The notes under the pieces were generated by a model, which was given only the letters and a program-made list of their open reading frames with translations, was not told the origin of the DNA and ran no database searches. Both the position numbers and the translations under genes were made by a program. A stretch of 64,000 nucleotides of DNA from an uncultured Mailhella sp. (lineage in GTDB: Bacteria > Desulfobacterota > Desulfovibrionia > Desulfovibrionales > Desulfovibrionaceae): positions 1-64,000 of the forward strand of contig NZ_CALUYL010000011.1 in the NCBI RefSeq assembly GCF_944324995.1. Direction: 5' to 3'. Positions 27,649 through 44,777 of this stretch are shown piece by piece (the first letter of the stretch is position 1; each line of letters begins with the position of its first letter).

Positions 27649-27724
27649 GAAAACCTCCTTTTTTCCGAAGCGTAGCAGAGCCCGGCCGCGCGGCACACGG
27701 GACATATTCTTAAAGGCACGACGC

Positions 27725-27760: not shown

Positions 27761-27829
27761 CTCTCAACGCACCTTCGTCCAGCTCTCTCCTCCCGCCTCT
27801 TTGTCCCGCCCGCAGGGCCCGCAAAAAAA

Positions 27830-28150: not shown

Positions 28151-28174
28151 GTCGCCCGCAGCCCCCGCCAAAAA

Positions 28175-28372: not shown

Positions 28373-28431
28373 AGACTCGGCGGCTAAGTCCGCCACGTCC
28401 ACCAGCGGCGTTTCCAGCCCTGGTTCGCGAT

Positions 28432-29590: not shown

Positions 29591-31377
29591 CACACCCTCT
29601 CCAGCGTCGTGCGGAAGGCACGGTTGTCAGGATCATTCAGGAACCTGCGCATGGCCTCGGGGTCGTTCAGAATGTCCAGTCCCTGCGCGGCGGCAATGTC
29701 CCTCCGAGGAGTCGAAGCAAGTTCCCTGTCCACGCCCCGCGTCCCAGCCCTTCCAGCATGTTGCGCGTCCGAGGCCGCGCTTGAACTCGTCCCAGGACGA
29801 CGGTTCTTCAGGGCAGAATCCATGCCTTCTGCTCTGCCAGAGTCGAACAAAGGCAACATGCCCCCGCCACCTGTGACCAGCATTTTATTCTTGCGCCATG
29901 CGTCAAGGCCGCGTATAGTATTCTCAAAAGACGGGTTATTGACAGCAGAAAGGGTCCCGCTGCCAATGCTCTTCGAGCGCTCCCCCAATGAGGGAGTAAA
30001 GATGGAGGAAGTCGACCCGCCCTCCCAATAGCCCTTGTCTTTCAAAAGTCTTTCGACTTTAGAGGCTTCAGGATTATACAGCGTTATACTCTTGAAGCCT
30101 TTTTTGTCAGGAAGGCCGAAAAAGTCCGATATCGTCTTTCCCGGATCGGAAAGGCCCAGCGTCGCCCCGCGTCCCAGCCCTTCCAGCATGTTGCGCGTGC
30201 CGGGGCCGCGCGTCATCTCATCCATGACGTTCCGCCACGGTGCACCATCACCGAATTCACCCTTCTGCGCCGCCTGCGCCTCACCCGGGGCAAACGCCGC
30301 AGCGGTTCCTGCTCCTCCCATAGCCCTTGGGAGCGCCTTATAAATATTCGGATCGTCAGGGTTGAATGTGCCGCGATTCTGGACGGACTTGATCTGGTTC
30401 GGCTCTTTTACCATCCAATAGCCTTCGTCAGGCACATGGACATAATCCAGTTCCTGAGCCGGCTGCCCGGCACGACGCGCCGCACGTTTTTCCGGCAGTC
30501 CATACGTTCCTTTCAGATAGACATCCATCTGATGCGGGCTGTAAGGCGCGGGCTTTTCGGCAAAATAAAAGCCTTCGCCATAAACGCCCAGACTGTTTAT
30601 CTTGTCTTTGGAAAAAAACATCAAAAACGGCGTCTGTATTGTGGTGAACGACAAGAGGTCTGCCTTCATCATCAACCACTTTGGAAGAGCGCTTGACATC
30701 ATCAAGCTTTTGCCCCCAAAGTAATCGTGAGGCTTGGGGTGCGCTGCCGTTGGCAGTCTTGAACGCATCTTCGAGCCTCTTTTTATTTTCCACCTCATGC
30801 AGATAAACTCCCTGCCTGTCTTTACCGCTTTTTACAACAACTTCCCCGGCGTAATCCGTATCGCCGATACGCATGGGCGCGGATATCACCGACGTGTCGT
30901 ACCCTCTCCCTTTCCAGTTGCTTTGCCGGTCAAACACCGTTCCTCTTCTGATGATATCCGGCACGGCAGCGAACGCGGCCGACTTTTCCCTGCCTATACC
31001 GTGCCCCATCGAGTCTTTGACGCCTTCAAAGTCAAGGCTCACGTCTCCAGGCTCCGGGCTTCGCACCGCCCCCCGGAACATCTCGTCATACCATGCCGGA
31101 ACTTTTTCCGTCAGCGGCATTCCATCCTTCTGAAATTCTTTTCCGGTCAACGTCACTACCGGCTCCCCGAATACTGCTTCATTACAGGCTTTTGCCGCAG
31201 GCCAGTTCCCAAAACAGGCCTTGAAAAACGGACTTCCCGTGCCCATATCGCGGTACAGTTCCCCGGCCGCTTCCACTATCTCGGGATTATCCGCCCATCC
31301 TTTGGGCAAATCGTTGCAGTCGAGGCTGTCGGCAAACTTTCCGAGCAGCCCATAAGTTTCTGCGGTATCTTCGCCAT
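29590..31377 (-). pseudogene. Mosaic second copy of the effector, frame-shifted and fused
   Basis: A near-identical duplicate of the previous gene with three differences. A net one-base loss near 31350 breaks the frame soon after the ATG at 31377. The same T7 shift is present at 30612-30618. The end is mosaic: the ART-like part runs into a linker also found in the gene at 26243 (NVMDEMTRGPGTRNMLEGLG), a fragment shared with the gene at 41812 (YWEGGSTSSIFTPSLGE), and finally the last 36 codons of the 106-aa gene joined at a shared RDIA. The 402-codon open frame from 30798 is the result of this fusion. It probably encodes no working effector. Confidence 0.72.
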
Positions 31378-31697
31378 CACACCCTCTCCAGCGTCGTGCG
31401 GAAGGCACGGTTGTCAGGATCGTTCAGGAACCTGCGCATGGCGTCCGGGTCATTGAGAATGTCCAGTCCCTGCGCGGCGGCAATGTCCACCACGGCCACG
31501 GGTATGGACGCAACCTTGCGGAACGTAGGCGCTTTTTGAAAGCCGCACTTCTGTGCGTTCTGCTCCGCCCTGTTCTGCCGAATGATCTCCGTCACGTCCT
31601 GAGCGCGGGAAATGATTCCCTCTTCCGTCACGAAGTCGGAAACACCGTCCGCGCAGGCAAAGCGCACACCGCGCACGCCCTGCGAAAGTTCAAGCAT
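31377..31697 (-). CDS. 106-aa phage protein preceding an effector, copy 2
   Basis: A 106-residue duplicate of the protein at 27328, differing at a handful of positions (for example FACADG for FAYADG). It has the same GGAGG ribosome site, the same TGATG overlap with the following effector gene, and the same upstream terminator. The protein itself is intact although its partner is broken, which suggests either recent decay of the partner or independent selection. Confidence 0.72.
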   Translation of the reverse strand: MLELSQGVRGVRFACADGVSDFVTEEGIISRAQDVTEIIRQNRAEQNAQKCGFQKAPTFRKVASIPVAVVDIAAAQGLDILNDPDAMRRFLNDPDNRAFRTTLERV

Positions 31698-31773
31698 GAA
31701 AGCCTCCTTTTTCCCGAAGCGTAGCAGAGCCCGGCCGCGCGGCACACGGGACACATTCCCAAAGGCACGGCGC

Positions 31774-31809
31774 AAAAAAAACGGGCGCGGAAACCATGTT
31801 CTGCGCCCG
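31774..31809 (-). terminator. Terminator upstream of the second 106-aa gene
   Basis: On the minus strand CGGGCGC/GCGCCCG is followed by eight T residues. It is a duplicate of the terminator at 27725, showing that the copied unit includes the terminator and the 5' region of the 106-aa gene. Confidence 0.8.
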
Positions 31810-31878
31810 CTCTCAACGCCCCCTTCGTCCAGATCTCTCCTCCCGCCTCTTTGTACCGCCCGCAGGGCCCGCCAAAAA

Positions 31879-32072
31879 CAGCGGCAGCCCCTTGCGGAGC
31901 GCGTCAATCTCTGGTATGTTGGACTCAATGGAAACGCCGTCAGCAGAGACACGCTCGCTGCGTATTCCGTGCACATTTTGTGTATCGGTCAAAGGATGGA
32001 AGGCGGAACCATCCGGCGTTTCCCAGGAACGGCTCTTCATCTTGAGGAGCCGTTTATTGTTTATGGGGTTCA
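31879..32072 (-). repeat. Effector repeat R copy 4
   Basis: An R copy in which the central ~33 bp (the SPEGG codons in other copies) is replaced by unrelated sequence (GTGCACATTTTGTGTATCGG), while both flanks are conserved. This local replacement suggests gene-conversion-like exchange within the repeat. Confidence 0.78.
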
Positions 32073-32136
32073 CCAGACTCGGCGGCCATGTCCGCCACGA
32101 CTTTCTGCCGATCTTTTCAGCTTGTCGCGTCAGTCA

Positions 32137-32337
32137 TCATTCCTCCCATCCGAAGTATCCGAAAAGGCCGCCAAGCCTGTCACCCAACCAGTTGCCCGCT
32201 TTGTCCATGCCATAGGAGATGAACGGCTCAGCGATCACAGAAGCCGCGCGGCCCGCCGCCGTGGCCGCGCCTACGGGAGCCGTCAGCATGTCGACGGGAT
32301 CAAAAACGGGCGTTACCAGCCCCGGTTCGCGGTTCAC
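32137..32337 (-). pseudogene. Orphan C-terminal effector cassette
   Basis: A 66-codon frame (EPGLVTPVFDPVDMLTAPVG, ending WLGDRLGGLFGYFGWEE) matching the C-terminus of the effector at 41812 (EPGLETPLFDPVDMLTAPIG). It has no toxin module. It looks like a silent donor or debris from recombination. Confidence 0.65.
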
Positions 32338-32460
32338 ATAGCCCGGAGCATTCGCAGACTAGGGATATTCATCCGCAGGGATGGCGCGGACGCGGTAGTC
32401 CTGCACGGGCACAAACGCCCGTGCTTCGCCCGGAGAAAGCGCGGCGGCCGTTCCACCGGC

Positions 32461-32795
32461 AAAAGCGGTAACATCCCCTTGTATATCGTATCAATCGCGG
32501 GTATATTGGAGTCATCAGAAACGCCGTCAGCAGAGATGTGCTCGCTGCGTAAACCGGTCTTTTCGACCGAGTTAGACGATGGTATAGACGGTTCTTCCGT
32601 ATTGCTGCGCCATCCGGCGTTTCCCATAAACGGCTCTTCATCCTGAGGAGCCGTTTATTGTTTACGGGATGCACCTGGTGGAGACTCGTTATTTCCTCTG
32701 ATGGGAAGCCCCAATCCCCCGAAGTACTTCCCCATGTGCCCACGCTTTCAGCACATGTTTCATTCGCACGCTCATAAACATTCCGCCCGCCTTGA
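32461..32795 (-). repeat. Effector repeat R copy 5 with extension E
   Basis: The most divergent R copy (SADGVSDDSNIPAIDTI in place of SADGVSTESNIPEIDAL), with a strongly altered middle, followed by a well-conserved E segment. It indicates an older duplication than the other copies. Confidence 0.75.
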
Positions 32796-32817
32796 AGGTC
32801 GCCCGCAGAACCAGCCG

Positions 32818-33150
32818 AAAAACGGCGGCAGCCCCTTGCGGAGCGCGTCAATTTCTGGTATGTTGGACTCAATGGAAACGCCGTCAGCAGAGAGCGCTCG
32901 CTGCGTGGCCCCTCCCTCCGGGGAGTGTGAGGTATTAGGATGGAAGGCGGAACCATCCGGCGTTTCCCAGAAACGGCTCTTCATCCTGAGGAGCCGTTTA
33001 TTATTTACGGGATGCACTGGTGGAGACACGTTATTTCCTCTGATGGGAAGCCCCAATCCCCCGAAGTACTTCCCCATGTGCCCACGCTTTCAGCACATGT
33101 TTCATTCGCACGCTCATAAACATTCCGCCCGCCTTGAAGGTCGCCCGCAG
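32818..33150 (-). repeat. Effector repeat R copy 6 with extension E
   Basis: A well-conserved R plus E pair at the start of the cassette region, immediately downstream of the cargo operon terminator. It is nearly identical to copy 2 over its length. Confidence 0.8.
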
Positions 33151-33207: not shown

Positions 33208-33246
33208 CAACAAAGCCCCCAGGGGAACTGCCATTCTCCTGGGGGC
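33208..33246 (-). terminator. Terminator of the cargo operon
   Basis: On the minus strand GCCCCCAGG/CCTGGGGGC (33238-33246 and 33215-33223) with a 14-nt loop is followed by TTTGTTG. It lies about 75 bp past the last cargo gene and isolates the operon from the effector region. Confidence 0.87.
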
Positions 33247-33321
33247 GAAACCTGGATCACTCAATCCGGGAACGAGCCCGCATCCGGGGAGGATTGTGTC
33301 GGCAACACTTTCCTTCCCTTC

Positions 33322-34263
33322 CTAATGCGCACTTTTCAGGGAAGCGTCGAGAATCGGCCGCCATGCCTTCCACGCCATGCCGAGAATCAGCAGCGCGAAC
33401 GCCACGCGGAACACGCCCGCCCTGCTCCACAGCTCGATGATGCCGATATGGGCGAACACGCCCCAAAAGGAGCAGATCAGAAGCGCGACCACGGTTCCGA
33501 CCTTCCTGTTGCTGATTTCGTGCAGGGCCACGGCAATGGAATCTATGGTGGAGCTCGTCACGCAGAGCACCGCGACAAGCAGAACAAGATTCATGCCCGT
33601 GGTGAACTGCAGCTGCGCCATGACGAGCACGAGCAGCATGTACAGCCCGAAAAAGAAGCTCCCCCAGAAGAACGCCGTGCCGCGTCCCGTCACTTCCGCC
33701 CGCTGCCAGTGCTGCACGTCGCCTATCGGCCCCGAAAGCAGTATGCACGCGCTCCACAGGCCCCAGAGCATGTCGTCGGAGGAACTTTCGGGAAACGCGA
33801 TGCGCGGAACATCCTGCCACAGCCCCATGCCGATGATGACCACAATGGCCAGCATGGTCATGCCCCACTGCCAGCAGTCCGTCCAGATGGACGCGGAGAG
33901 GCCGTGCCGGTACATGGCAAGGGTGAACGCCCAGCCCACGGCCGCGGCGGCAAGAGAGGCTCCGCCTTCCGGAACGCCCATGTCCCTGAGCACCATGAAC
34001 AGGATGTTCATCTGAATGACGAGGCAGAAGCACTGGATGACCAGCGCCATGACTTTTATCCCGGGGCGGTCGAAGACATGCCGCCCGAGAAGGCCGCAGC
34101 GGGCAAGCAGGCCGAAAAACGCCAGCGTGAGCGTGTTGGCCGCGGCCCAGACGGCCCAGGCTCCAAGACCTTTCTGCTGCGCTATCTGCATGCCCACGAT
34201 GAGCGAGGTTCCCCACGCCCACGAGGCGGCAATGGAGGCTCCTGTTTTTACATCTCTCTGCAT
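33322..34263 (-). CDS. Polytopic membrane protein, possibly symporter-like
   Basis: A 313-residue protein with about nine or ten membrane segments. The early SWAWGTSLIVGMQIAQQKG and later GLSASIWTDCWQWGMTMLAI segments recall sodium:solute symporters, but the protein is much shorter than a normal 13-TM member. The ATG has a strong GAGGAGG site; the gene follows the VUT-family gene by 10 bp. As the last gene of the cargo operon it may move a substrate or product, or act in the host membrane. The substrate is unknown and the family call is weak. Confidence 0.6.
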   Translation of the reverse strand: MQRDVKTGASIAASWAWGTSLIVGMQIAQQKGLGAWAVWAAANTLTLAFFGLLARCGLLGRHVFDRPGIKVMALVIQCFCLVIQMNILFMVLRDMGVPEGGASLAAAAVGWAFTLAMYRHGLSASIWTDCWQWGMTMLAIVVIIGMGLWQDVPRIAFPESSSDDMLWGLWSACILLSGPIGDVQHWQRAEVTGRGTAFFWGSFFFGLYMLLVLVMAQLQFTTGMNLVLLVAVLCVTSSTIDSIAVALHEISNRKVGTVVALLICSFWGVFAHIGIIELWSRAGVFRVAFALLILGMAWKAWRPILDASLKSAH

Positions 34264-34273
34264 GGCTGCCTCC

Positions 34274-34969
34274 TCAAACCTTGAGTGAAAACGGATTGTA
34301 GGACACGTCGGTGTCATAGGCATCCGCGCCTTCTTTCTGCTTCACCCAGCGCACCAGTCTGGAAGAAACGGGAAGCGTCATGGTTTCCACCGCCGTTTGA
34401 ATGAGATAGGTGGTGCAGGCAAAGCCGACGGCTTCCTTCAGGCTGAGAATGCCGTAGAAGGCGATGACATGAAACACCAGCGCATCCAGCGCCCGCCCGA
34501 ACACGGAAGAAATGAACGCCCGGCTTTTGAAGTACCTGCCCCGGCTCAGCAGCTTGAGCCGGGACATGATCCAGGAATTGACCGTGGAACAGGCGACATA
34601 GCCGCACAAAATGGCGACGAGTATGCGCGGCCCCATGCTGAACGCCCTGTCGTACGCCTCCGCCATGCTGCCCATGCAGGAGGCCGCCGGAAGCGCCACG
34701 CTCAGCTGAAAAATCCCCACCACGAGAATCGCCAGAAAAAACGTTATCCACATGACGAAGCGGGCTCTGGCATAGCCGTAAAGCTCGGTGAGGCAGTCGT
34801 CGATCACATAGGTGACGATGAACGTGAAAATGCCCGTGGTCACATTCAGGCCGAAAGCGTTGACGACTTTTATTTCCAGAAACAGATCAATGATGAAGAA
34901 GGTCACGAAGACCGCACAGAAAACCGTATAGCAGACGGATGTTTTCTGTTCGCAACTGCGCATTTCCAT
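34274..34969 (-). CDS. VUT/YhhQ-family membrane transporter
   Basis: A 231-residue protein with six membrane segments and the family core VTTGIFTFIVTYVIDDCLTE followed by LYGYARARFVMW, matching the VUT (DUF165, queuosine precursor transporter) family. YhhQ imports 7-deazaguanine precursors in Escherichia coli; whether this phage-block member carries the same substrate is unknown. AGGAG lies upstream of ATG 34969; a second ATG two codons later is possible. It follows the second radical SAM gene by 8 bp. Confidence 0.78.
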   Translation of the reverse strand: MEMRSCEQKTSVCYTVFCAVFVTFFIIDLFLEIKVVNAFGLNVTTGIFTFIVTYVIDDCLTELYGYARARFVMWITFFLAILVVGIFQLSVALPAASCMGSMAEAYDRAFSMGPRILVAILCGYVACSTVNSWIMSRLKLLSRGRYFKSRAFISSVFGRALDALVFHVIAFYGILSLKEAVGFACTTYLIQTAVETMTLPVSSRLVRWVKQKEGADAYDTDVSYNPFSLKV

Positions 34970-34977
34970 GAGAACGG

Positions 34978-36033
34978 CTACTCCTGAACCAGATATTCCG
35001 TGAGAAGAGCGTGAATCCTGCAATGGGCGGGATCCTTGGGCATGCCGTTCCATTCGGAAAGGTCGGAGGTCATGGTGCGCCACGGAATGACGCGGCAGAG
35101 ATTGTTGCACGTCATGCATCCCTCGGGAATGCCCTTGGGAAGCTTTGCCAGCAGCGCCGCCCTGTTCTGCTGGATGCTTTCAAAGTCGTCGTCGATGCTG
35201 CCGAACTTCAGCAGGTCGGCAACGGCCTTGTCTTCGAGCGCGGTTTCATAGCCGGGGTACAGGGAGCCGTCATAGTACATGGCCAGATAGACCACGGAAT
35301 AAAACGTGTCGCTCACACCTTCGCGGCGCATTCTTCCCGGCCCGTCGTTGAAGAAGAACGCGTTTTTCAGTTCGGGATGCTCCTGCATGTGCGCCTGTAT
35401 TCTGGCAAGGGACGCCCGCACCGCGTCTTCGTCGATGTCGGTGAAGAACGCGCCGAAGCGGTCGATGTTGAACACGGCCATGAGGTCGGGAAGATCCTTG
35501 CGGAGTTCGAGGAAGTCAAAAAAGACTTCATCCATGCGATGAATGTTCTTCGCGCTGAACACCGATATGGTTTTGTTGGTGAATCCGTTCTTGTACAAAA
35601 AGCGGATGTTGTTTCTCACGGTTTCATAGGAGTCGGCCTTGCGCGTTTCATTCTGAAAGGCGTAGTCGTACGAGACCACGATATAAATCTGACACTGGTT
35701 GTCGCTTCTCATTCTGCTGAGAATGTCGATATTCTCCTGAGCGAGCGAGCCGTTGGTGATGATATGCACCCGCAGGAGGCAGGGATCGGCCGCGTGCACG
35801 AATTCGGCGATGTCGTTCAGGCGCATGAAGGGTTCGCCGCCGAATATCACCACGACGATGTCCTCTTCGGGCATGACGCTGGTCTTGAGCCATCTGATAT
35901 ACTCCGCAAGGCGGGAAAGATGTTCCACGGACACCCTGGTGACTTCCCTGTTCACGGAGGGTTCGCCGTTTTCAAAGCAGTACGAACACTGATAGTTGCA
36001 GTAGCTTCCGACATTCACTTCTATCTTTATCAT
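34978..36033 (-). CDS. Radical SAM enzyme 2 of the cargo operon
   Basis: A 351-residue radical SAM protein. The 4Fe-4S motif is CNYQCSYC near residue 12 (CxxxCxxC), followed by the GGEP motif (VIFGGEPFMRL) near 68 and the barrel strand HIITNGSL near 95. The C-terminus has a reduced SPASM-like set: CMTCNNLC near 312 and a later HCRIH, while the expected earlier Cys of the auxiliary domain is replaced (SLYPGYE). It may therefore hold one auxiliary cluster or act as a twitch-type partner. Its ATG overlaps the PP-loop stop codon (ATGA). Confidence 0.85.
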   Translation of the reverse strand: MIKIEVNVGSYCNYQCSYCFENGEPSVNREVTRVSVEHLSRLAEYIRWLKTSVMPEEDIVVVIFGGEPFMRLNDIAEFVHAADPCLLRVHIITNGSLAQENIDILSRMRSDNQCQIYIVVSYDYAFQNETRKADSYETVRNNIRFLYKNGFTNKTISVFSAKNIHRMDEVFFDFLELRKDLPDLMAVFNIDRFGAFFTDIDEDAVRASLARIQAHMQEHPELKNAFFFNDGPGRMRREGVSDTFYSVVYLAMYYDGSLYPGYETALEDKAVADLLKFGSIDDDFESIQQNRAALLAKLPKGIPEGCMTCNNLCRVIPWRTMTSDLSEWNGMPKDPAHCRIHALLTEYLVQE

Positions 36034-37151
36034 GCTTGCCTCCGGGCATCGGTTCTCTGATAATCCGAGAGCAGACGTTTCATCATGGCTTCGCGAAGAC
36101 GCGCGGCCTTCTCGTCATCCTCCGGAAGTTCCACGCCGGCGGATTCCACGCGCACGCGTTCCGGGCTCTCCATGGCAATGACGCTCACGGGATAGGTCCA
36201 AAGCTCCCGGGCGTCTCCCTCGCGCTTCATGGGCCACGACGCCTGCTTGCCCTTGTGCAGGCGATAGGCCCTGTCGCCGTTGTACGCAAAAATGTAGTCT
36301 TTGAGCTGCGCCTTGTAGTGTTCCGTATCCTGCTGAGGATACTGATGAAGCACGTCAAAATTGGAAACGCTCCAGGCGTTGAATTCGGGAGTGTCGTAAA
36401 AGGAAAGCATCCGGCCCGTGAGACGCCCGGTAAGCATGACGTCGGTGTACTTCACGAAGTCGTACTTGCAGGAGAAATTCATGAACCACAGAAACTCTCC
36501 GAGCGTCCGCACCGGAAGTCCATAGTGCCGGAAGGCCTCCTCGAACTGCCCCACGGCGTCGTCGAAGCCTATCCAGTCGCGCCAGTCGCGGAAATACCAG
36601 TCGGGATAATTGTGGTTGATCAGGCTGCCGAAGAGCTGATCGGCACACCAGCCGGTCAGGGCGTATCCTTTTTCCATCGCCTGCTGCTGCGCCTTGTCCA
36701 GAGCCCGCCCCGGAAGCACGAAATGCATGGCGACGCCCGAGGCGCGCAGATGCTCGAAGAACGCCGGATACTCTTCCACGGAATACTTGGTATAGACGAC
36801 GTGCAGGCCGCGAAGGCTGCCGCCCGCGTTTTTCAGCATGGCTATGGTCATGGCCGTGCTGTCCACGCCGCCGGAGCAGAAAAGGTACAGGTCCCGGCCT
36901 TCACGGCGGGATTTGTTCCAAAGTTCCGCGGCCCGCTCGTCCATGACATCCCTGAGGGGCTTCGAGAAGGTCGCCTCGTACATGTTCAGGTGCGGCTCGT
37001 ACAGGTTGTACGGAGAAAAGCGGTTCAGAAAGCCGAAACGGTCCCGCAGCGCGTAATATCCCGTTTTGCCCGCAAACACGGAAAGCGCGTCCGTGTGACC
37101 GTCGGGCCACGCGAGCATGTGATGAGAAGAAAGAAGAAAGAGCGTCCGCAT
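36030..37151 (-). CDS. PP-loop ATPase (asparagine-synthase/QueC-like) of the cargo operon
   Basis: A 373-residue protein with an ATP-pyrophosphatase loop LFCSGGVDSTAMTIAML near residue 92 (SGGxDS). The N-terminal ~85 residues are not an amidotransferase domain (no Cys2), so it is not a full asparagine synthetase. Such enzymes adenylate a carboxylate or carbonyl for amide, nitrile or thio chemistry. Its start is two bases after the stop of radical SAM 1, and its end overlaps radical SAM 2. I infer that it activates a group on the same substrate the radical enzymes act on. The substrate is unknown. Confidence 0.82.
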   Translation of the reverse strand: MRTLFLLSSHHMLAWPDGHTDALSVFAGKTGYYALRDRFGFLNRFSPYNLYEPHLNMYEATFSKPLRDVMDERAAELWNKSRREGRDLYLFCSGGVDSTAMTIAMLKNAGGSLRGLHVVYTKYSVEEYPAFFEHLRASGVAMHFVLPGRALDKAQQQAMEKGYALTGWCADQLFGSLINHNYPDWYFRDWRDWIGFDDAVGQFEEAFRHYGLPVRTLGEFLWFMNFSCKYDFVKYTDVMLTGRLTGRMLSFYDTPEFNAWSVSNFDVLHQYPQQDTEHYKAQLKDYIFAYNGDRAYRLHKGKQASWPMKREGDARELWTYPVSVIAMESPERVRVESAGVELPEDDEKAARLREAMMKRLLSDYQRTDARRQA

Positions 37152-37153
37152 GG

Positions 37154-38368
37154 TCACGCCTCCAGCCTTTTCACGCCAAGAAGCTGGCCGCCCGTGAGCA
37201 TGTTCACGGCCATGGAAAGCGCAGGGAACCACTTGTGCCACTGAATGCGGCAGTTCACCTCGTCGTACTTCTCCGGCGTGCCGAGGCATCCGCCGCCGCA
37301 GAACATGCGCATCACGCAGTCCATGCAGGCGCGCTCGCGCCGACTCTCCAGCACCGCGAGCTTCACGGGCACGCGCGGCCCCTCAAGCGTTCCCATATGC
37401 AGATTGCCGCCCCTCTCATCCTCATGTTTTCCGGCAAAGGAATGACAGGCCCAGACGTTGCCGGTGATGTCCACATTCAAAGAAAGTGCGCCGGGCTGAG
37501 CGTTCTGACAGCCGCCGAATCCGCCGGTCCGCCCCAGGCTTCGGAGAAAACTCTTTGCGGCCTGAACATAGGCATGGGCGAAGCGCCGTCCTCTTCCGAT
37601 GAAGAGCTCGCGGCAGCAGTCCAGCGAAAAGGCGTACAGCTCCTTTTCCGAAAGCGCCCACGCGGCGCTCGCCTCATCGCCGACCATGAGCATCTGCACG
37701 TCGCCGATGGCCCACTCTTCCGAGCCGAGGCGCTCATCCATGAAGTCGATGAAGCGGGAGACAAGCGGATTTTTCCTGTGGAACACCGGATTCACCGACC
37801 AGTGATGACGGGCCACGCCGTCCTTCAGCGCCTCAAGCGCAAAGGAACCGGGAGCGAGCACATCGCTTTCGTCTCTCGCACTCTGCCCCGACCCGTCGTA
37901 GGAAAAGCCCACGCCGACATGATTGTCGTGCAGCCAGGCGAGATTTTCCTCGTTGAGCAGCGCGCCGTTCGAGCAGATGCCCAGGAGTGTGCGGGGCTTC
38001 ACGTCTCTGAGACCGGCGGCGAGTTCCTTCATCATGTCGAAATACAAAAGAGGCTCCCCGCCCCAGAACAGGACGCGCGCCGCGTCCACATGGCAAAAAT
38101 GCCTGTCGCAGTAGTCGCGCACGCCTCTGACGAAGGCATCCAGACGGAGCGGAGAGAAGATTTCCTTTTTCATGTCGGCCTGACAGCAGTAGCCGCATCT
38201 GTAGTTGCACGCCGTGCCCATGACGATGTTGATTCTGAGCTCCTCGCCGTCCCGCTGACCCATGATGAAGTTCGGCGGAACCCCGGCTCCGTCAAGGGTG
38301 TTGAGTCTGCTGTCGTAGGCGAGTCTGAGCGTTCCGGACGCATGTCCGACTTCAAAGACATATTTCAT
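37154..38368 (-). CDS. SPASM-domain radical SAM peptide maturase
   Basis: A 404-residue radical SAM enzyme. The cluster motif CNYRCGYC lies near residue 54, followed by FWGGEPLLYFD near 101. The C-terminal SPASM domain is complete: one Cys, then GNVWAC, then CMDCVMRMFCGGGC (CX2CX5CX3C) and a last Cys in VNCRIQW. Enzymes of this build modify ribosomal peptides (thioethers, C-C and C-O bonds) or act as sulfatase maturases. It starts 10 bp after a tail-fibre-like gene with a CxxC ladder, the natural candidate substrate. The ribosome site is weak (GAGAAG). Confidence 0.9.
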   Translation of the reverse strand: MKYVFEVGHASGTLRLAYDSRLNTLDGAGVPPNFIMGQRDGEELRINIVMGTACNYRCGYCCQADMKKEIFSPLRLDAFVRGVRDYCDRHFCHVDAARVLFWGGEPLLYFDMMKELAAGLRDVKPRTLLGICSNGALLNEENLAWLHDNHVGVGFSYDGSGQSARDESDVLAPGSFALEALKDGVARHHWSVNPVFHRKNPLVSRFIDFMDERLGSEEWAIGDVQMLMVGDEASAAWALSEKELYAFSLDCCRELFIGRGRRFAHAYVQAAKSFLRSLGRTGGFGGCQNAQPGALSLNVDITGNVWACHSFAGKHEDERGGNLHMGTLEGPRVPVKLAVLESRRERACMDCVMRMFCGGGCLGTPEKYDEVNCRIQWHKWFPALSMAVNMLTGGQLLGVKRLEA

Positions 38369-38378
38369 GTTTCACTTC

Positions 38379-38873
38379 TCAACAGTTGCAGTTGCAGTTG
38401 GAGGAGGTGCAGCGGCAGTTGCAATACGTGCAGTAGGAGCAGTAGGTGCACCAGCCGCTGCAATGGGTGCAGTAGGTGCAGTGCGTGTTGGCATCCCCGG
38501 GAAGTGTAATATTTCGCGTTGCGGCGGACGTCACTCTTCCTTTGGCGTCCACGGTAAAGTACGGCACGGTGAAGGTTCCGCCGTGCGCCGGGCTCGCGTT
38601 GCCGGTCGGGCCATAGTTTCCGGCGGTCACGCCGCTTGCGGAGACGCCCGTATTCGCCGTGCTCTGGGCCGCCTGGGCCGCACTTGCGGCTTCATCCGCC
38701 GCGCTCTGGGCCGAGCTCACGTCTTTCTGCAGGGCGTCGCTTTCCGCCTTCACGTCCGCCATGAGCTGACGAAGGGCGTTGTTGAGGCCGGAAGGCGGGC
38801 AGCCCTCGGCAATGTTGATGCCCGAAATCGTGGTGTTCAGATCCGGGTTGGTATTGTAGCTGGATACGGCCAT
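38379..38873 (-). CDS. Tail-fibre-like protein with C-terminal cysteine ladder (1), candidate maturase substrate
   Basis: A 164-residue protein. The N-terminal ~50 residues match phage tail-fibre attachment domains (GINIAEGCPPSGLNNALRQL). An Ala/Ser-rich helix (about 50-95), then a fibre-type strand region (VPYFTVDAKGRVTSAATR). The last ~37 residues hold 13 cysteines in a CxxC rhythm: THCTYCTHCSGWC, then CTYCSYCTYC and an Asn/Ser/Arg-Cys tail. The ladder is preceded by LPGDAN, possibly a leader/core border. GGAG lies 8 nt upstream of the ATG. The cysteine tail and adjacent radical SAM gene suggest a RiPP-like substrate; metal binding or disulfide cross-linking are alternatives. Confidence 0.8.
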   Translation of the reverse strand: MAVSSYNTNPDLNTTISGINIAEGCPPSGLNNALRQLMADVKAESDALQKDVSSAQSAADEAASAAQAAQSTANTGVSASGVTAGNYGPTGNASPAHGGTFTVPYFTVDAKGRVTSAATRNITLPGDANTHCTYCTHCSGWCTYCSYCTYCNCRCTSSNCNCNC

Positions 38874-38886
38874 GCCTTAATCTCCT

Positions 38887-39357
38887 TCACAGGCAATACG
38901 AAGTGCAGTGCGTGCAGTAGGTGCAGTGCGCACACCAGCCGCTGCAATGGGTGCAATAGGTGCAGTGCGTGTTGGCGTCGGCAGGAAGCGTTACGGTTCT
39001 TGTTGCGGCAGCCGTTATCCTGCCTTTCGCATTCACGGTAAAAAAAGGAACCTGAAAGGACTGCTGATGCCCCGGAGAGACGTTGCCGGGCGGGCCATAG
39101 CTTCCGGCGGCCACGCCGCTTGCGGCAACTGACGCATCGGCCGTGCTCTGGGCCGCCCGGGCCGCGCTTGCGGCTTCCTCCGCCGAGGTCTTTGCCAGAC
39201 TCAGCTTTTCCCGCAGAGCGTCGCTTTCGGCCTTCACGTCCGCCATGAGCTGACGGACGGCGTTGTTCACGCCCGCCGGCGGACAGCCCTCGGCGATGTT
39301 GATGCCCGAAATCGTGGTGTTCAGATCCGGGTTGGCATTGTAGTTTGATACGGCCAT
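38887..39357 (-). CDS. Tail-fibre-like protein with C-terminal cysteine ladder (2)
   Basis: A 156-residue paralogue of the protein at 38379 and first gene of the cargo operon. It has the same fibre-type N-terminus (GINIAEGCPPAGVNNAVRQL), the same strand region (VPFFTVNAKGRITAAATR) and a shorter ladder with eight cysteines: THCTYCTHCSGWC is identical, then AHCTYCTHCTSYCL. AGGAGGG precedes ATG 39357; codons upstream in frame are non-coding spacer. Two substrates with a constant first half and variable second half of the ladder are encoded side by side. Confidence 0.8.
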   Translation of the reverse strand: MAVSNYNANPDLNTTISGINIAEGCPPAGVNNAVRQLMADVKAESDALREKLSLAKTSAEEAASAARAAQSTADASVAASGVAAGSYGPPGNVSPGHQQSFQVPFFTVNAKGRITAAATRTVTLPADANTHCTYCTHCSGWCAHCTYCTHCTSYCL

Positions 39358-39561
39358 GAACCCTCCTTTTTCACGAACATGACACAGGCGCAGAGCGCGG
39401 CACAGAAAAAGCGGGGAATGGCGCGGCCCGGGACGGACGCGACAGGAAAGCACGCAGGAAGGAAGCGGCGCGGAACCGGCGCGGCAAGGAAACGGCCCGG
39501 CGGGAAGCCGGAGCCGCAGGAAAAGCCGACGCCCGGCCCCGCCGCCCCGGAAGCACAGCGC
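39358..39561. other. Purine-biased spacer before the cargo operon
   Basis: No gene is supported. Plus-strand purine-rich sequence contains the word GCGCAGAGCGCGGCACA, close to words in the porin spacers. It must contain the cargo promoter if the terminator at 39562 is efficient, but no convincing -35/-10 pair is visible. Confidence 0.5.
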
Positions 39562-39590
39562 AAAAAAAGAGCGGCGGGTTTCCCCGCCGC
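39562..39590 (-). terminator. Terminator after the major capsid gene
   Basis: On the minus strand GCGGCGGG/CCCGCCGC with a GAAA tetraloop is followed by TCTTTTTTT. It lies 21 bp past the capsid stop codon and separates the head genes from the cargo operon. Confidence 0.92.
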
Positions 39591-39610: not shown

Positions 39611-40567
39611 TTACGCCGACTTGAGATCGGCCAGCACGCCGGAAGAGGCGTCGTTTCTGGCTTCGAGCGTGCATTCCACAAGCACATGGCCCTTCAGGCT
39701 GTCGCCGGTGACGGCGAGACGCTCCTCGCGGAAGCCGCGCAGATACGCCACCTTCCAGTACTGAGGATCGAGCACGAAGGCGCAGGTCTTGGAGAAGGAC
39801 TCGAAGGCCTGCACGCGGTTCGGCACGAGCTTGAGGGAACCGAAGTCGGAAACGTACACGTCGATGACCGCGGTCGCCTTCTTTCTTTCGGCCTTTTCAA
39901 TCTTGGTCGCGCCGCCGGAAAGCACCTCGCTCATCTTCACGCGGATGTCGGGCGCCATCATGATGCGGTCGGGGTTGCCGCCCGCGTTGTACACGGCCGT
40001 GAGCAGATTCTTGAGCATGGCTTCCGTGGGAACGCGCGCCGTGCCAGCCGTACACGCTTCCGAAGTCGTGGCCTTTGCGCCGCTGTCGCCCCCTGCGTAG
40101 TTGGTCTGCATCCAGCAGGGAAGGCCGGTCATGAGGCGGCCTTCACTGGAGCCGTTGTCCGCGCGGGCAAGCTTGTTCTGCAAAAGCGCGTATTCCACGT
40201 CCTTCTTGAGTTCCTTGGTGCGAAGGGCCATCTGATAGGCGTACTGCCTGTTCACGCCCGCCTGCTTCACGGCCTGCGCCGTGCCGGAAACGTTGATGGC
40301 CTTCTTGAGAATCTGCGTCTTGTTGGAAAGTTCCGTGGTGCTGCTTTCGGAAAACGTCGTGGTATCCGCGCCTTCGAGCACGGAATTCTCGGCCGGACTC
40401 GCCAGCGTGTCGGTCTGCCACTCGTGCAGCGTCTGGCTCGCCTCGCTTTTCCCGCACATGGAGAGAAAAGGCGTGTCCGTAGGGGCAACGTTGAAAATGG
40501 TGTTCATCAGATCGCGGGGCTTGCCCTTGATGCCCGCGTCCTTGAGCTGACCGGAAACGGTAGCCAT
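39611..40567 (-). CDS. Phage major capsid protein (SU10/DUF5309 type)
   Basis: A 318-residue protein with the pattern of SU10-like capsid proteins: an early DLMNTIFNVAPTDTPFLSM segment, HEWQTDTLASP near residue 47, a helix-rich middle (ELKKDVEYALLQNKLA), and a C-terminal block (FVLDPQYWKVAYLRGFREE). These proteins take the HK97 fold and form the head shell. ATG 40567 has AAGGAGG upstream. It follows the scaffold gene by 10 bp. Confidence 0.88.
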   Translation of the reverse strand: MATVSGQLKDAGIKGKPRDLMNTIFNVAPTDTPFLSMCGKSEASQTLHEWQTDTLASPAENSVLEGADTTTFSESSTTELSNKTQILKKAINVSGTAQAVKQAGVNRQYAYQMALRTKELKKDVEYALLQNKLARADNGSSEGRLMTGLPCWMQTNYAGGDSGAKATTSEACTAGTARVPTEAMLKNLLTAVYNAGGNPDRIMMAPDIRVKMSEVLSGGATKIEKAERKKATAVIDVYVSDFGSLKLVPNRVQAFESFSKTCAFVLDPQYWKVAYLRGFREERLAVTGDSLKGHVLVECTLEARNDASSGVLADLKSA

Positions 40568-40577
40568 AACAACCTCC

Positions 40578-41543
40578 TTACATTTCTGCTTCGAACAGGG
40601 CCGCGAGCGCGTCCGTGCTGTTCGGGTTCCTGGAAAGCAGGGCGCGCGCCCTTTTCGCCCTGTCGCCGGCGTCGGCCTGCGCCGCGCCCCGCGGGCTCTG
40701 CACCCGGGGCGCTTCCGCCACCTTTTTCGCGGCGCTGGCGCGCCTGGCCTGCATTCTGTCGTAGAGCATGGCCTTGGCGACAAACTTCACCTCATAGCCC
40801 CGGGACAGCCCGTTGACCACCTCGGGCGGGCATCCCTGCTCCTGCATGTATTTCGCCACGTCGGAAGCAAAGGTTCTGCTGTCGAATCCGGCGCCCATGA
40901 GCGCCCTGATTTCCGGCTGCACCTGCGCAAACTCGGAAGCCATCCTGTGCTGCGCTTCCTGCGCCCTCTGCGCTTCATAGAGATTCGCGGCCTGCGCAAC
41001 ACCCTGCTGCACCCGCTGAATGGCTCCCATGCGCGCGTTGTACGCCTGCTGGAGCTTGATGCAGGTTGCAGGATCGCTCTGCGCAAGGCCGTTCCAGTCC
41101 ACGCCGCCGTACTCGCCTTCCACGATCTGCTTCATGGTTGCGAGCGCCTGCTGAATCTGCGCGTTCGCGGCCACGGCAAAACGCTCCTGCTGCTGCCGGG
41201 CGGCCTGCCGTTCCTGCTCCGCCTGCGCCGCGGCCTGCGCATGCGCTTCTTCCCGCGCGTGCACGGCGCTGCGAACTTCCGGCGTCATGCCCTGCCACAG
41301 GGCCTCTTCAAAGCCTTCCGGCCTGGGAATGTCGGACGCGGTGTCCTGTTCTCCTTCGTCCGGCGCCTCAGACTGCGGCCCCGCAGGCTCCTCACCTTCC
41401 TCGCCTTCATCCCAAGGCTGATTCCCGCCGTCTTCGGCAGCTTCCTCCTCCGCGAACATTTCGGCGACGGAATCCACATCGTACACGCCTTCTTCGGCGC
41501 TCCCGCCGACGTCTCCGCCGAGTTCTCTGGGTTCTTCGTTCAT
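40578..41543 (-). CDS. Phage head scaffolding protein
   Basis: A 321-residue, highly acidic N-terminal half (about 1-75, rich in Glu/Asp/Gly), a long Gln/Ala coiled-coil middle (EQERQAARQQQERFAVAANA) and a basic C-terminus (GDRAKRARALLSRNPN). This layout and the position directly before the capsid gene are typical of scaffolds that guide procapsid assembly. The ATG overlaps the previous stop (ATGA). Confidence 0.8.
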   Translation of the reverse strand: MNEEPRELGGDVGGSAEEGVYDVDSVAEMFAEEEAAEDGGNQPWDEGEEGEEPAGPQSEAPDEGEQDTASDIPRPEGFEEALWQGMTPEVRSAVHAREEAHAQAAAQAEQERQAARQQQERFAVAANAQIQQALATMKQIVEGEYGGVDWNGLAQSDPATCIKLQQAYNARMGAIQRVQQGVAQAANLYEAQRAQEAQHRMASEFAQVQPEIRALMGAGFDSRTFASDVAKYMQEQGCPPEVVNGLSRGYEVKFVAKAMLYDRMQARRASAAKKVAEAPRVQSPRGAAQADAGDRAKRARALLSRNPNSTDALAALFEAEM

Positions 41544-41815: not shown

Positions 41816-42702
41816 TCTTTTTCTCCCATGAAGTAGTCAAGCAGGCCTCCCAGCTTGTCCACGCCGCAGGAAACCGCAGGCGCAAGCAGGGCCGCGGCCG
41901 CCTTCCCCGCTTTTGTCGGCACGCCGATTGGAGCCGTCAGCATATCGACGGGATCAAAAAGCGGCGTTTCCAGACCCGGCTCCGTGTTCACATATCCCGG
42001 AGCATCGGCAGGCCATAAGGCCAGCCCTGCACCTGTACCCGCGCCCGCTATGGCGGGTGCTTGCAGCTTGAGCTTTTTTAACTGTTCCTGTAAGGTATGT
42101 TCAAAAGGGGTGCTGACAGCAGAAATGGGACCGCTGCCAACCTGCACCGCAGGCATCTTCATCAGTGAAGGTGAGAATATGGAGGAGTTCGGCCCGCCCT
42201 CCCAGTACCCTCTTTTCTTCAACAAATTCTCCACCTTTGAGGTTTTCGGATCGTACATGGTAACGGTTTGAAAACCTTTTTTGTATGGCAAAATAGGCAT
42301 ATACCATGACCTATCCTGCTTGCCCGCAGGATTCCACAACGCCTCTTTTGCTATCGGATTTTTTCCAAGAACATTTGGAATAAGTACCGTATCCGGTGAA
42401 TCGTAAATCCCCCGATATCCTTCAGCTATCTGTTCCGACGTCCAATTATCTTTCTTAACACGCTGGATAAGCCCATGATTATTGAAATAGCCATAGTTTC
42501 CGCCATATTCGGCCGAATTTTTCAAAGCAGTTGCCGCATTCGGACTTTCCAGTGTTCCTGCTTTGCTTCCTCCATATTTTCGGCCTGCAATGGCCTTTTT
42601 TACTACGTCCAGAATATCCGGTCTTACTGCGCCTTCCGCATCATCCGGCTGTGAAGAAGCGGCAATAAGCCCCAGCAGGCCGCCGAGCGCCTTCCTATCC
42701 AT
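41812..42702 (-). CDS. Second polyvalent-type effector, between portal and scaffold
   Basis: A 296-residue protein. It starts MDRKALGGLLGLIAASSQPD and ends VDKLGGLLDYFMGEKE, with the same hydrophobic LGGLL motif at both ends as the effector at 26243. The centre (about 30-180) may be a toxin-type module of the RelE/Barnase-like fold (SWYMPILPYKKGFQTVTMYD; GYWEGGPNSSIFSPSL). Fragments of this gene occur in the mosaic at 29590 and the cassette at 32137. ATG 42702 overlaps the portal stop by one base (TGATG) and has AGGGGG six bases upstream. An internal virion protein injected at infection is the best guess. Confidence 0.6.
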   Translation of the reverse strand: MDRKALGGLLGLIAASSQPDDAEGAVRPDILDVVKKAIAGRKYGGSKAGTLESPNAATALKNSAEYGGNYGYFNNHGLIQRVKKDNWTSEQIAEGYRGIYDSPDTVLIPNVLGKNPIAKEALWNPAGKQDRSWYMPILPYKKGFQTVTMYDPKTSKVENLLKKRGYWEGGPNSSIFSPSLMKMPAVQVGSGPISAVSTPFEHTLQEQLKKLKLQAPAIAGAGTGAGLALWPADAPGYVNTEPGLETPLFDPVDMLTAPIGVPTKAGKAAAALLAPAVSCGVDKLGGLLDYFMGEKE

Positions 42703-44777
42703 CACCATCCCCCTACGCCCTTGATCTTCGTGAGCCCGCTGCCCTTCTCGCCCATCCTGAGGCGCGTCTCATCGAGATCCCTTTCCATGCTCATTCCCAT
42801 GGCTTTCAGCGCGAGCTCGCCTTCCGTCTTCTGCCTGGCAAGCGCTATCTTGCTCTGCGTCTCAAAGGCCTTGCGCTGCGCGTCCGTCTGCGCCTTCCAC
42901 GCGTCGGCCTGCTGTTTGGCCTTCGCCTTCTGCTCTTCAAGCCTGAGCTTCTGCTCTTCCGGCGACGGCTGCGCGGGCGCGTTCAGCATGGCCTCTTCCG
43001 CGCGTCTGGCATCCTCTTCCGTGCCGAAGAAGCGTTCCGGCGCTTCCAGTCCGGCGGCCTCGCACATTTTGTGACAGGTGTACACCACGTTCGAGAGGCG
43101 CACCGGAGAGTTCTTTCCCATCTGCGCGAGAAACTGCTGCTGTATCTGCAAAATCTGCCGATACGCCGCGAGCAGCTTGCTCCGGTTGCCGGTGCCGAGG
43201 CCCACGGCCACGGAAATATCCATGTCGGGATCCCACCTGCGCGGATCGAACGCCATGAATCTTCCCTTGAGTCGGAGCTGAATCTCCTTGTCCTGATACC
43301 TGTGCAGAAGATGCAGAACATAGCGGCCGAGCGGCTTGAAAAACGTTTCGGCATAGACGCGGGCAATCAGTTCCAGGCGCTGATTGATCGCCTCCTCCAT
43401 GATGGACGCCCCCGTGGCCGTGTTCTGGAGCGCGTCGGCCTGAAGGCTCTGCGTGCGGCTCGATATGCCTGTTCGGCGTTCGATGAGCTCGGAACTCATG
43501 CTGAGCCCCTGCAGCGCATCCCCGGCCGCCGTGGCCACCGGAAGAGGCGTGATGCTCGCATCCCCCTGTATTCTGTGAACGGCCCCGGCCTCGCGGGCGA
43601 GCAGACTGTCGTATTCCACATGGCCGCTCATGCCCTCGTTGACCACAAGCTCGCCCTGATTGGAAAGCATGAGATTGTCGAGATACTGACGCGTCATTTC
43701 CGTGCGCAGATCCTGCAGATCGGTGACGAGGTCGGCCAGACAGAGCCCCACCGCCTGATGCGGCATGGGCACCGAACAGGCCGCAAACAGCGGAGCGCGG
43801 TACAGCGGCCATTCCTCGAACCGCAGCACCCGGCACGACTCGGCGTCGCCGCAGAACGTGACCTTGACCTTCTCCGCCACGCCGTCGCCGTCCATGTCGA
43901 AGTCGAACCACGCCTCATACACCTTGTATTCCCGCGTGGCGCGGCTCTGACCGTCCCTGTCCGCGCCGTTCGCATCGTTGACGGCGCGCCCGACCTCCGT
44001 TTCCGGCATGACGTCGTCGTCTTCGAGCGGCGGCAGCTCGTCGATGAGAGACTGCGCATAGCCTTCCTTGCGCAGATCCGAAGCCGTCTTCACTTCCCAG
44101 TGCGCGATGAAGCGCGCCTTCTCCACGTCCGCGGCGTCCGAAGAAATCACCACGTTTTCCGAAGGCACGGGATCAATGCGGATATCCCGCGTCTTCACGG
44201 TGCGGTGCACGGTGAGGTCATACCGGGGCCCCAGCGGCGAATCATACCGTTCCACGCGCACCGCGCCCGGCGTTTCCATGTCGAGCGCCGGATCCATGAG
44301 CAGCGCCACGGCCTCCTGCTGCGAAAGCCCGGCGTACTGGAACACGCGCCGCTCCGTCTTTTCCGGGCAGTGAACAAGGCACCAGCCCACGCGCTGATAC
44401 AATCCGTCGGCGAGCACGTCGTGAACCAGCGAAAACATGCGCCTGCCGAACACCACCTGATTGACGTACAAGGTGGCGTCCTTGGCCGCCTGTTCCTGCG
44501 CGGGCGTGCGCGGATCAAAACGGATGATCTCGTCGCCGCAGAACACGCGCATGAGGCCGGGCTTGGCCCATTCCACGGTTTCCAGCACGGTGCGGTCCAC
44601 GTACACGGAAAAGCCGCGACGCGCCCGGTCGTCGTCCACGGCATAGCCGCAGCCGAGATATCGCCTCTTGAGCATCGAACGCTCATCCGAGAGCCTGGAG
44701 CCTTCCGTGCCCATGCACTGCTCCATTTCCCTCACGATGACGCGGCGAAGCCCGTCCTTTGTCTCTTTTCTGTCCAT
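42702..44777 (-). CDS. Phage portal protein
   Basis: A 691-residue portal of the podovirus/SU10 type: an N-terminal wing (FDPRTPAQEQAAKDATLYVN near residue 85), a central block with TRREYKVYEAW-like sequence, and a crown/stem region (GISSRTQSLQADALQNTATG near 440). A long C-terminal coiled coil (about 590-670, QKLRLEEQKAKAKQQADAWK) probably projects into the head. The portal is the dodecameric gate for DNA entry and exit. ATG 44777 overlaps the terminase stop by one base; an in-frame GTG two codons earlier is an alternative. Confidence 0.9.
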   Translation of the reverse strand: MDRKETKDGLRRVIVREMEQCMGTEGSRLSDERSMLKRRYLGCGYAVDDDRARRGFSVYVDRTVLETVEWAKPGLMRVFCGDEIIRFDPRTPAQEQAAKDATLYVNQVVFGRRMFSLVHDVLADGLYQRVGWCLVHCPEKTERRVFQYAGLSQQEAVALLMDPALDMETPGAVRVERYDSPLGPRYDLTVHRTVKTRDIRIDPVPSENVVISSDAADVEKARFIAHWEVKTASDLRKEGYAQSLIDELPPLEDDDVMPETEVGRAVNDANGADRDGQSRATREYKVYEAWFDFDMDGDGVAEKVKVTFCGDAESCRVLRFEEWPLYRAPLFAACSVPMPHQAVGLCLADLVTDLQDLRTEMTRQYLDNLMLSNQGELVVNEGMSGHVEYDSLLAREAGAVHRIQGDASITPLPVATAAGDALQGLSMSSELIERRTGISSRTQSLQADALQNTATGASIMEEAINQRLELIARVYAETFFKPLGRYVLHLLHRYQDKEIQLRLKGRFMAFDPRRWDPDMDISVAVGLGTGNRSKLLAAYRQILQIQQQFLAQMGKNSPVRLSNVVYTCHKMCEAAGLEAPERFFGTEEDARRAEEAMLNAPAQPSPEEQKLRLEEQKAKAKQQADAWKAQTDAQRKAFETQSKIALARQKTEGELALKAMGMSMERDLDETRLRMGEKGSGLTKIKGVGGW

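What the first reader, a model, noticed from the sequence alone, without database searches (positions are those of the whole stretch)
33208..39590. Phage-borne RiPP-like operon with tail-fibre proteins as candidate substrates
Seen: two tail-fibre-like proteins with CxxC ladders (8 and 13 Cys) are followed within 10-14 bp steps by a SPASM radical SAM enzyme, a PP-loop ATPase, a second radical SAM enzyme, a VUT-family transporter and a polytopic membrane protein. Known: SPASM radical SAM enzymes install thioether and other cross-links in ribosomal peptides, often on Cys-rich substrates next to their genes. Inference: the fibre domain acts as leader and virion anchor, and the ladder is the modified core, giving a phage particle that displays a modified peptide. 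I know of no described system with this arrangement.
Basis: partly seen in the sequence, partly recalled or inferred. Interest (0 to 1): 0.93.

Follow-up and report, generated by a model that had tools for sequence, protein, structure and literature searches.

The report
Radical-SAM-stapled phage tail-fibre tips
This prophage carries two tail-fibre-like proteins that end in a ladder of cysteines and, right beside them, a radical SAM enzyme predicted to cross-link those cysteines; because the same pairing recurs in many distantly related phages, phages likely build chemically stapled fibre tips, which would be a form of virion maturation we found in none of the papers we could search.

Summary
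In detail: a podovirus-like prophage has, in one tight operon, two tail-fibre-like proteins with terminal Cys ladders (8 and 12 Cys), a SPASM radical SAM enzyme, a PP-loop enzyme, a second radical SAM enzyme, a VUT transporter and a membrane protein. A scan of IMG/VR for a Cys-ladder motif, made without using the enzyme, finds the enzyme in 40 of 41 in-frame ladder loci with enough downstream DNA, against 0 of 80 loci whose fibre has the same anchor domain but no ladder. Enzyme relatives have a same-strand ladder within 5 kb in 58 of 130 loci (opposite strand 1 of 130). In some phages, such as Achromobacter phage 2-1, a Hint autoprocessing domain follows the Cys tail. Corrected: PP-loop, second radical SAM and membrane protein are an optional add-on, present in a minority of ladder loci and also beside a ladder-free fibre; the PP-loop protein has the asparagine-synthetase/beta-lactam-synthetase fold; a CxxC ladder alone is not diagnostic (23 of 31 in-frame IMG/VR hits are other repeat proteins, none with the enzyme). 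Chemistry, virion display and function remain inferred. Ten searches of an open-access library found no such system.

The parts
38887..39357 (-). Fibre A: tail-fibre-type N-terminal domain, Ala-rich middle, C-terminal ladder of 8 Cys (..THCTYCTHCSGWCAHCTYCTHCTSYCL)
38379..38873 (-). Fibre B: paralogue of fibre A, C-terminal ladder of 12 Cys (..THCTYCTHCSGWCTYCSYCTYCNCRCTSSNCNCNC)
37154..38368 (-). Radical SAM/SPASM enzyme, matches phage family phrog_1802; nearest named maturase PapB (ranthipeptide), below its cut-off
36030..37151 (-). PP-loop ATP-pyrophosphatase with asparagine-synthetase/beta-lactam-synthetase fold, no glutaminase domain; optional add-on
34978..36033 (-). Second radical SAM protein (also matches phrog_1802); optional add-on
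34274..34969 (-). VUT-family membrane transporter (queuosine-precursor transporter family)
33322..34263 (-). Polytopic membrane protein; homologues lie near a PP-loop gene in L165, L166, L167 and L178
39617..40567 (-). Major head protein directly upstream: the operon lies in the prophage's structural gene block

Best explanation
Two tail-fibre-like phage proteins whose C-terminal tails carry 8 and 12 cysteines are encoded directly upstream of a SPASM radical SAM enzyme that is predicted to install thioether-type cross-links in those tails, which would give the virion a stapled, compact fibre tip that likely serves contact with the host surface. Shown: gene order, ladder, enzyme family, its conserved CX3CX2C and SPASM cysteines, and specific co-occurrence of Cys-tailed fibre and enzyme across phages. 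Inferred from known SPASM enzymes of ranthipeptide, SCIFF and quinohemoprotein maturation (recalled chemistry): that the bonds are Cys thioethers. Inferred from the fibre N-terminal domain and from the ladder lying at the protein's end: that the modified ladder stays on the particle. In some relatives a Hint domain follows the ladder and would cut itself off, exposing the ladder as the new C-terminus. The window's PP-loop enzyme, second radical SAM enzyme and membrane proteins are an optional add-on that would make a further, amide-type modification on fibre proteins; its substrate is open.
For: (1) Relatives of the enzyme in public loci have a same-strand five-Cys ladder within 5 kb in 58 of 130 loci (20 of 45 clusters at 70% enzyme identity), opposite strand 1 of 130. 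The one exception, L289, has its motif at the N-terminus of a short repeated ORF, not at a fibre end. (3) Controls: 0 of 80 loci with the same fibre N-terminal domain but no ladder (0 of 36 with room); 0 of 88 stretches with only an out-of-frame CxxC motif and 1 of 17 with only an out-of-frame CxC motif. (4) The ladder lies within 12 residues of the ORF's end in 91 of 103. (5) Homologues of fibre B keep the ladder on different N-termini (P0005-P0008, P0017); P0005 and P0017 share contig lengths with enzyme relatives P0125 and P0129. (6) CxxC type: 8 fibre-type tails among 31 in-frame hits, 6 with the enzyme, the other two with 0.9 and 2.2 kb downstream. (7) Ladder spacing (CxC or CxxC) is clustered on the enzyme tree: 5 changes against 8.6 in shuffles, 0 of 500 as low. 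(8) Hint family PF05203 above cut-off directly behind the Cys tail in Achromobacter phage 2-1 (46.6 against 32.1 bits); Hint-like motif behind the tail in 7 distinct loci. (9) Closest solved structure by sequence is 5wgg, E 1e-20, labelled 'Radical SAM domain protein' (recalled: CteB, a SCIFF thioether maturase).
Against: No chemistry or virion data were found. Asp and Glu, by recall the acceptors of ranthipeptide and quinohemoprotein maturases, are absent from the window's ladders. The enzyme is far below the cut-off of every named maturase shown (PapB 73 against 340 bits). 72 of 130 enzyme loci show no strict ladder within 5 kb, and in the mixed set 13 of 158 loci with >=4 kb upstream had neither ladder nor partner genes, several of them Variovorax or Ramlibacter genome contigs. 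CxxC repeats exist in other proteins without the enzyme: of 14 in-frame CxxC hits with room only 3 have it. The window phage lacks the partner genes P270 and P205 that recur in 102 and 96 of those 158 loci. Long enzyme branches make fine placement in the tree unsure.
Confidence: 0.68

Rival explanations
1. The Cys ladder binds metal (zinc or iron-sulfur) at a membrane-piercing or adhesive fibre tip, and the SPASM enzyme helps only indirectly or acts on something else.
For: Dense CxC and CxxC spacing is what metal sites use; metal-binding fibre and spike tips are known in other phages (recalled).
Against: The tight co-occurrence of ladder and enzyme (40 of 41 against 0 of 80) is not needed for plain metal binding, and CxxC repeat proteins do without the enzyme.
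Confidence: 0.12
2. The ladder is the core of a released RiPP: the fibre domain is only a leader, and the lysogen frees a modified, Cys-rich peptide (a bacteriocin or signal).
For: By recall, SPASM maturases usually act on small released peptides; two membrane proteins sit in the operon.
Against: No peptidase or peptide exporter was recognised among the operon's seven proteins; the N-terminal part is a domain found in a protein annotated putative tail fibre; where a cleavage domain occurs it lies behind the ladder, so the ladder would stay on the fibre.
Confidence: 0.1
3. The SPASM enzyme modifies another partner (the ~270-aa Ig-like protein P270 or the fibre body), and the ladder is an electron or sulfur accessory.
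For: P270 recurs beside the enzyme (102 of 158 loci of the mixed set).
Against: No P270 homologue was detected in the window or in Achromobacter phage 2-1, where ladder and enzyme are kept.
Confidence: 0.07
4. Neighbouring genes only: unrelated accessory genes gathered in a variable fibre region.
For: Fibre regions collect accessory genes; PP-loop and membrane genes also occur without a ladder fibre.
Against: 40 of 41 against 0 of 80, holding at 13 of 14 clusters at 40% identity.
Confidence: 0.03

Closest known systems
Ranthipeptide and SCIFF maturation by SPASM radical SAM enzymes (PapB, CteB)
   Same: SPASM radical SAM enzyme encoded beside a protein with a Cys-rich C-terminal stretch; PapB is the best-scoring named maturase, 5wgg the best solved structure.
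   Different: Enzyme far below the family cut-offs; the candidate substrate is a fibre-type protein of 156-164 aa in a phage structural block, not a short leader-core peptide.
Quinohemoprotein amine dehydrogenase maturation (TIGR03906, QhpD)
   Same: Same enzyme superfamily, E 8e-17; by recall it cross-links Cys inside a structural subunit that is not released as a peptide.
   Different: Bacterial periplasmic enzyme subunit (recalled), no phage, no fibre domain; score 61 against cut-off 453.
phrog_1802 'radical SAM domain-containing protein' of phages
   Same: The window enzyme matches it (E 1.5e-33) and so does the enzyme of locus L005 (4.6e-61).
   Different: The PHROGs entry names only the domain (category 'other') and no link to Cys-tailed fibres.
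Asparagine-synthetase-type ATP-pyrophosphatases (AsnB, beta-lactam synthetase, TsnB9)
   Different: No N-terminal glutaminase domain; sequence below Pfam cut-off; in phages near fibres.
Hint (hedgehog/intein) autoprocessing domains
   Same: PF05203 directly behind the Cys tail in phage 2-1.
   Different: Not present in the window's own fibres; one search for Hint with tail fibre and cysteine found no paper.

Membership tests
SPASM-domain radical SAM enzymes | CX3CX2C cluster motif in the radical SAM core | tested here: met
   C54, C58, C61 invariant in 10 aligned sequences; PF04055 33.8 against 29.5 bits
SPASM-domain radical SAM enzymes | C-terminal SPASM cysteines (CX2CX5CX3C and partners) | tested here: met
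   C348, C351, C357, C361, C373 invariant; TIGR04085 31.0 against 27
PapB ranthipeptide maturase (NF047865) | score above the curated cut-off | tested here: not met
   73.1 against 340 bits
SCIFF maturase (TIGR03974) | score above the curated cut-off | tested here: not met
   49.5 against 425 bits
RiPP | short precursor of leader plus core | tested here: not met
   Candidate substrates are 156 and 164 aa with a fibre-type N-terminal domain
RiPP | post-translational modification of the core | not testable with these tools
   needs mass spectrometry
RiPP | release of the core by a peptidase | tested here: inconclusive
   No peptidase recognised in the operon; Hint domain in some relatives would cut behind the core
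Phage tail fibres | fibre-type N-terminal domain | tested here: met
   181 homologous proteins; Paracoccus phage KLEP18-1 gp22, annotated putative tail fibre protein, 52.4% identity over residues 1-42. PHROGs itself gave fibre B only a family of unknown function
Phage tail fibres | presence in the particle | not testable with these tools
   no virion proteomics found in the passages read
Asparagine-synthetase-type PP-loop enzymes | SGGxDS PP-loop and synthetase fold | tested here: met
Asparagine synthetase | N-terminal glutaminase domain; score above PF00733 cut-off | tested here: not met
   373 aa, aligned to the synthetase part only; 13.1 against 21 bits
QueC | score above PF06508 cut-off | tested here: not met
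   12.7 against 22 bits
VUT / queuosine precursor transporter | score above cut-off | tested here: met
   PF02592 124.4 against 27.2; TIGR00697 90 against 50.95

The most novel reading that the evidence does not exclude
Phages of many hosts run a general virion-maturation pathway: a dedicated radical SAM/SPASM enzyme staples the Cys-rich end of the tail fibre, with optional layers (2OG-type oxygenase, a second radical SAM enzyme, an asparagine-synthetase-type ligase, Hint cleavage). Virions would thus display a RiPP-like, chemically edited receptor-binding or membrane-contact tip.
Probability: 0.5. Interest if true: 0.95.

Novelty: new variant of a known kind. Interest (0 to 1): 0.86.

Why it matters
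Fibre tips decide which bacteria a phage infects, and they are usually treated as unmodified protein. If their ends are cross-linked by a phage enzyme, predictions and production of fibres from sequence alone miss the functional chemistry, and fibres made without the enzyme would be wrong or inactive. It would also extend SPASM peptide chemistry from released peptides to particle-bound protein ends, and gives phrog_1802, a phage family known only by its domain, a testable job.

Tried and rejected
PP-loop protein as QueC (which with VUT would suggest a deazaguanine pathway): rejected as family; the fold is asparagine-synthetase type, and no QueC row is among the 50 shown. VUT could still import a small-molecule precursor; not followed.

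PP-loop genes as wholly foreign to the ladder system: my first reading, softened. Matches to the PP-loop profile with an intact SGGxDS lie in 5 of 103 in-frame ladder loci and 6 of 156 enzyme-selected loci, some directly beside the SPASM gene (L037, L101, L197, L295); most are distant relatives (72-142 bits; L032 341 bits). A narrow-pattern scan of IMG/VR for the family itself had found only 5 loci.

CxxC ladder alone as a search handle: rejected. The CSYCSYCSYC DNA scan (119 stretches) gave 31 in-frame ORFs: 8 fibre-type tails, 6 of them with the enzyme (L309 and L330 look like one phage), and 23 other, mostly repeat, proteins, 0 with the enzyme (the split into two kinds is by my reading of the tails). 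A shorter ladder pattern in 288 family genomes hit 20 genomes; only the 5 hits in the own genome are known to lie in ladders, the frames of the others were not checked.

Literature: ten searches of the open-access library, eight on the subject and two on phage JWF. Seen: PMC11118758 (abstract, outline and 12 passages; RiPP families of marine prokaryotes co-expressed with phage proteins), PMC9959647 (6 passages), PMC3899368 (7 passages), PMC7159879 (6 passages); other papers as listings only. None of these describes Cys-tailed fibres with radical SAM enzymes. Preprints and most subscription papers are not held.

Changed on re-check: the first count of the ladder scan used 80 of the 120 held stretches and gave 27 of 27; all 120 give 40 of 41.
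Full report
WHAT IS THERE. The operon lies on the - strand of a podovirus-like prophage: terminase, portal, scaffold and major head protein (44777-46036, 42702-44783, 40578-41543, 39617-40567) are followed by fibre A and fibre B, then the SPASM radical SAM enzyme, PP-loop enzyme, second radical SAM enzyme, VUT transporter and a membrane protein. Gaps are 13, 10 and 2 bp, a 4-bp overlap, 8 and 10 bp. Fibres A and B share their N-terminal domain and end in ladders of 8 and 12 Cys with mostly Thr/Ser and Tyr/His between them.

THE FIBRES. 181 proteins are homologous to fibre B (120 listed). Eight of the 120 have at least 5 Cys within 40 residues, all in a ladder at the C-terminal end; P0001-P0003 have the window's N-terminal domain, P0005-P0008 and P0017 other N-termini. 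So the ladder with its preceding 'FTVPY.TVNAKG.ITAAATRTI' segment behaves as a module of its own. Two of these ladder proteins share contig lengths with relatives of the SPASM enzyme (P0005/P0125 at 4908, P0017/P0129 at 82779); equal length is the only link shown, and the other ladder proteins have no such partner in the list. The N-terminal domain occurs in Paracoccus phage KLEP18-1 gp22, annotated putative tail fibre protein.

THE ENZYME. It has the radical SAM and SPASM cysteines, invariant in the 10 aligned sequences, scores best against the PapB ranthipeptide maturase without reaching its cut-off, and matches phage family phrog_1802. By profile the nearest solved structure is 5wgg. In its own bacterial family it is rare: 3 of 288 genomes at E <= 1e-25, the own genome included; the single-contig genome of the same species, G223, has no match at that level but holds a more distant one.

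CO-OCCURRENCE, FROM THE ENZYME. Bacterial (76 loci) and viral (80 kept of 443) collections gave relatives mostly at 24-30% identity. Of 130 loci with a clear enzyme gene, 58 have a same-strand ORF with five Cys spaced by 1-2 residues within 5 kb; on the opposite strand 1 of 130. By ORFs: near same-strand 61 of 3557, near opposite 1 of 4669, far same-strand 3 of 2205, far opposite 1 of 2488. By enzyme clusters: 31 of 76 (90%), 20 of 45 (70%), 7 of 16 (50%), opposite strand 1 each. 72 of 130 have no strict ladder; some of these have looser Cys-rich proteins, others none.

CO-OCCURRENCE, FROM THE LADDER. 103 have the motif in frame, 17 do not. 80 of the 103 carry the enzyme in the held DNA; of 41 with at least 4.5 kb downstream 40 do; the other 22 without it have under 3.9 kb downstream. 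Clusters of the ladder protein with room: 29 of 30, 20 of 21, 13 of 14 at 90, 60 and 40% identity. The exception, L289, has the motif at the N-terminus of short repeated ORFs. Controls: out-of-frame stretches 1 of 17 (L205) and 0 of 88; 0 of 80 loci with the same fibre N-terminal domain but no ladder, 0 of 36 with room (80 kept of 567). The ladder, not the fibre domain, goes with the enzyme. 91 of 103 ladders end within 12 residues of the ORF's end. The pattern favours Asn between Cys, so the 75% Asn (80 stretches) is partly built in.

RESULTS AGAINST A SIMPLE RULE. A CxxC ladder by itself is not diagnostic: of 31 in-frame CSYCSYCSYC hits 6 have the enzyme; with room 3 of 14. By my reading of the tails 8 are fibre-type (6 with the enzyme; L391 and L401 without it have 0.9 and 2.2 kb downstream) and 23 are other, mostly repeat, proteins, none with it. 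In a mixed set of 158 loci with at least 4 kb upstream (ladder-selected loci included, looser ladder rule), 126 had a ladder and 13 had neither ladder nor partner genes.

PARTNERS. Two further genes recur in that mixed set: P270 (102 of 158), a protein of about 270 aa with an Ig-like end and an N-terminal part without a named match, and P205 (96 of 158), related to 2OG-Fe(II) oxygenases (PF13759 22.6 against cut-off 27; phrog_81 E 5e-10). Neither was detected in the window. In Achromobacter phage 2-1 (complete genome) the order is J/Tal-type tail protein, a small gene, the fibre, a 240-aa protein, the enzyme; the fibre runs ..NCNCDCNCS and then into a Hint domain (PF05203, 46.6 against 32.1 bits). 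Hint-like motifs follow the Cys tail in 7 distinct loci (L003/L163, L113, L160, L200, L212, L243, L249); of the five tested with Pfam only L160 is above the cut-off. If active, Hint would leave the ladder as the fibre's C-terminus (inference).

TREE. On a quick tree of 69 enzymes (60 CxC, 9 CxxC) the ladder spacing needs 5 changes against a shuffled mean of 8.6 (0 of 500 as low); window, P0125 and P0129 form one CxxC clade; several long branches make details unsure.

MECHANISM. Likely order (inferred): the fibre is made with its ladder; the SPASM enzyme cross-links the ladder in the cytoplasm; optional enzymes edit further; the fibre is built into the particle by its N-terminal domain; where present, Hint removes what follows the ladder. 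A stapled end would resist proteases and present a fixed surface to the host. Metal binding or release as a free peptide are the main rivals.

NOVELTY. Eight searches of the open-access library on the subject and two on phage JWF found no report (35, 87). The chemistry class is known (recalled); its use on a phage fibre end is not described in what was seen.

Noticed in passing
window 27328-33077: Directly behind the operon lie several near-identical and degenerate copies of phage gene pieces (for example the ORFs starting MDIIQFL at 28648 and 30436), as if a locus had been duplicated and is decaying.
   Followed up: no
L178 6755-11815 (same species, G223): A second, distant SPASM enzyme with its own 16-Cys CQTCQGC ladder protein, two PP-loop genes and a radical SAM gene in another prophage region of the same species.
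   Followed up: partly
L003 11457-12563: Same-genus genome: fibre with NCNCNCDCGDNC followed by a Hint-like stretch, then a P270-type protein and a SPASM enzyme.
   Followed up: partly
L304, L316, L320, L322, L374, L406 and others: Proteins with many CxxC triplet repeats (CSYCSDCSGC..) in viral contigs, without a SPASM enzyme in the held DNA: a different, unexplained Cys-rich family.
   Followed up: partly
L091, L111, L112, L117, L139, L141: Viral contigs (32-180 kb for L091, L111, L112, L139, L141) where the Cys clusters sit in the middle of a ~300-aa protein right behind the SPASM gene instead of at a fibre end.
   Followed up: no
window 34274-34969: A queuosine-precursor-type transporter encoded in a phage fibre region; no homologue was flagged in the same species' PP-loop region (L178).
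   Followed up: no
L289 1-228 and 5542-6159: Two short ORFs with an N-terminal GNGNCNCNCNC motif and no SPASM enzyme nearby, unlike the fibre ladders.
   Followed up: partly
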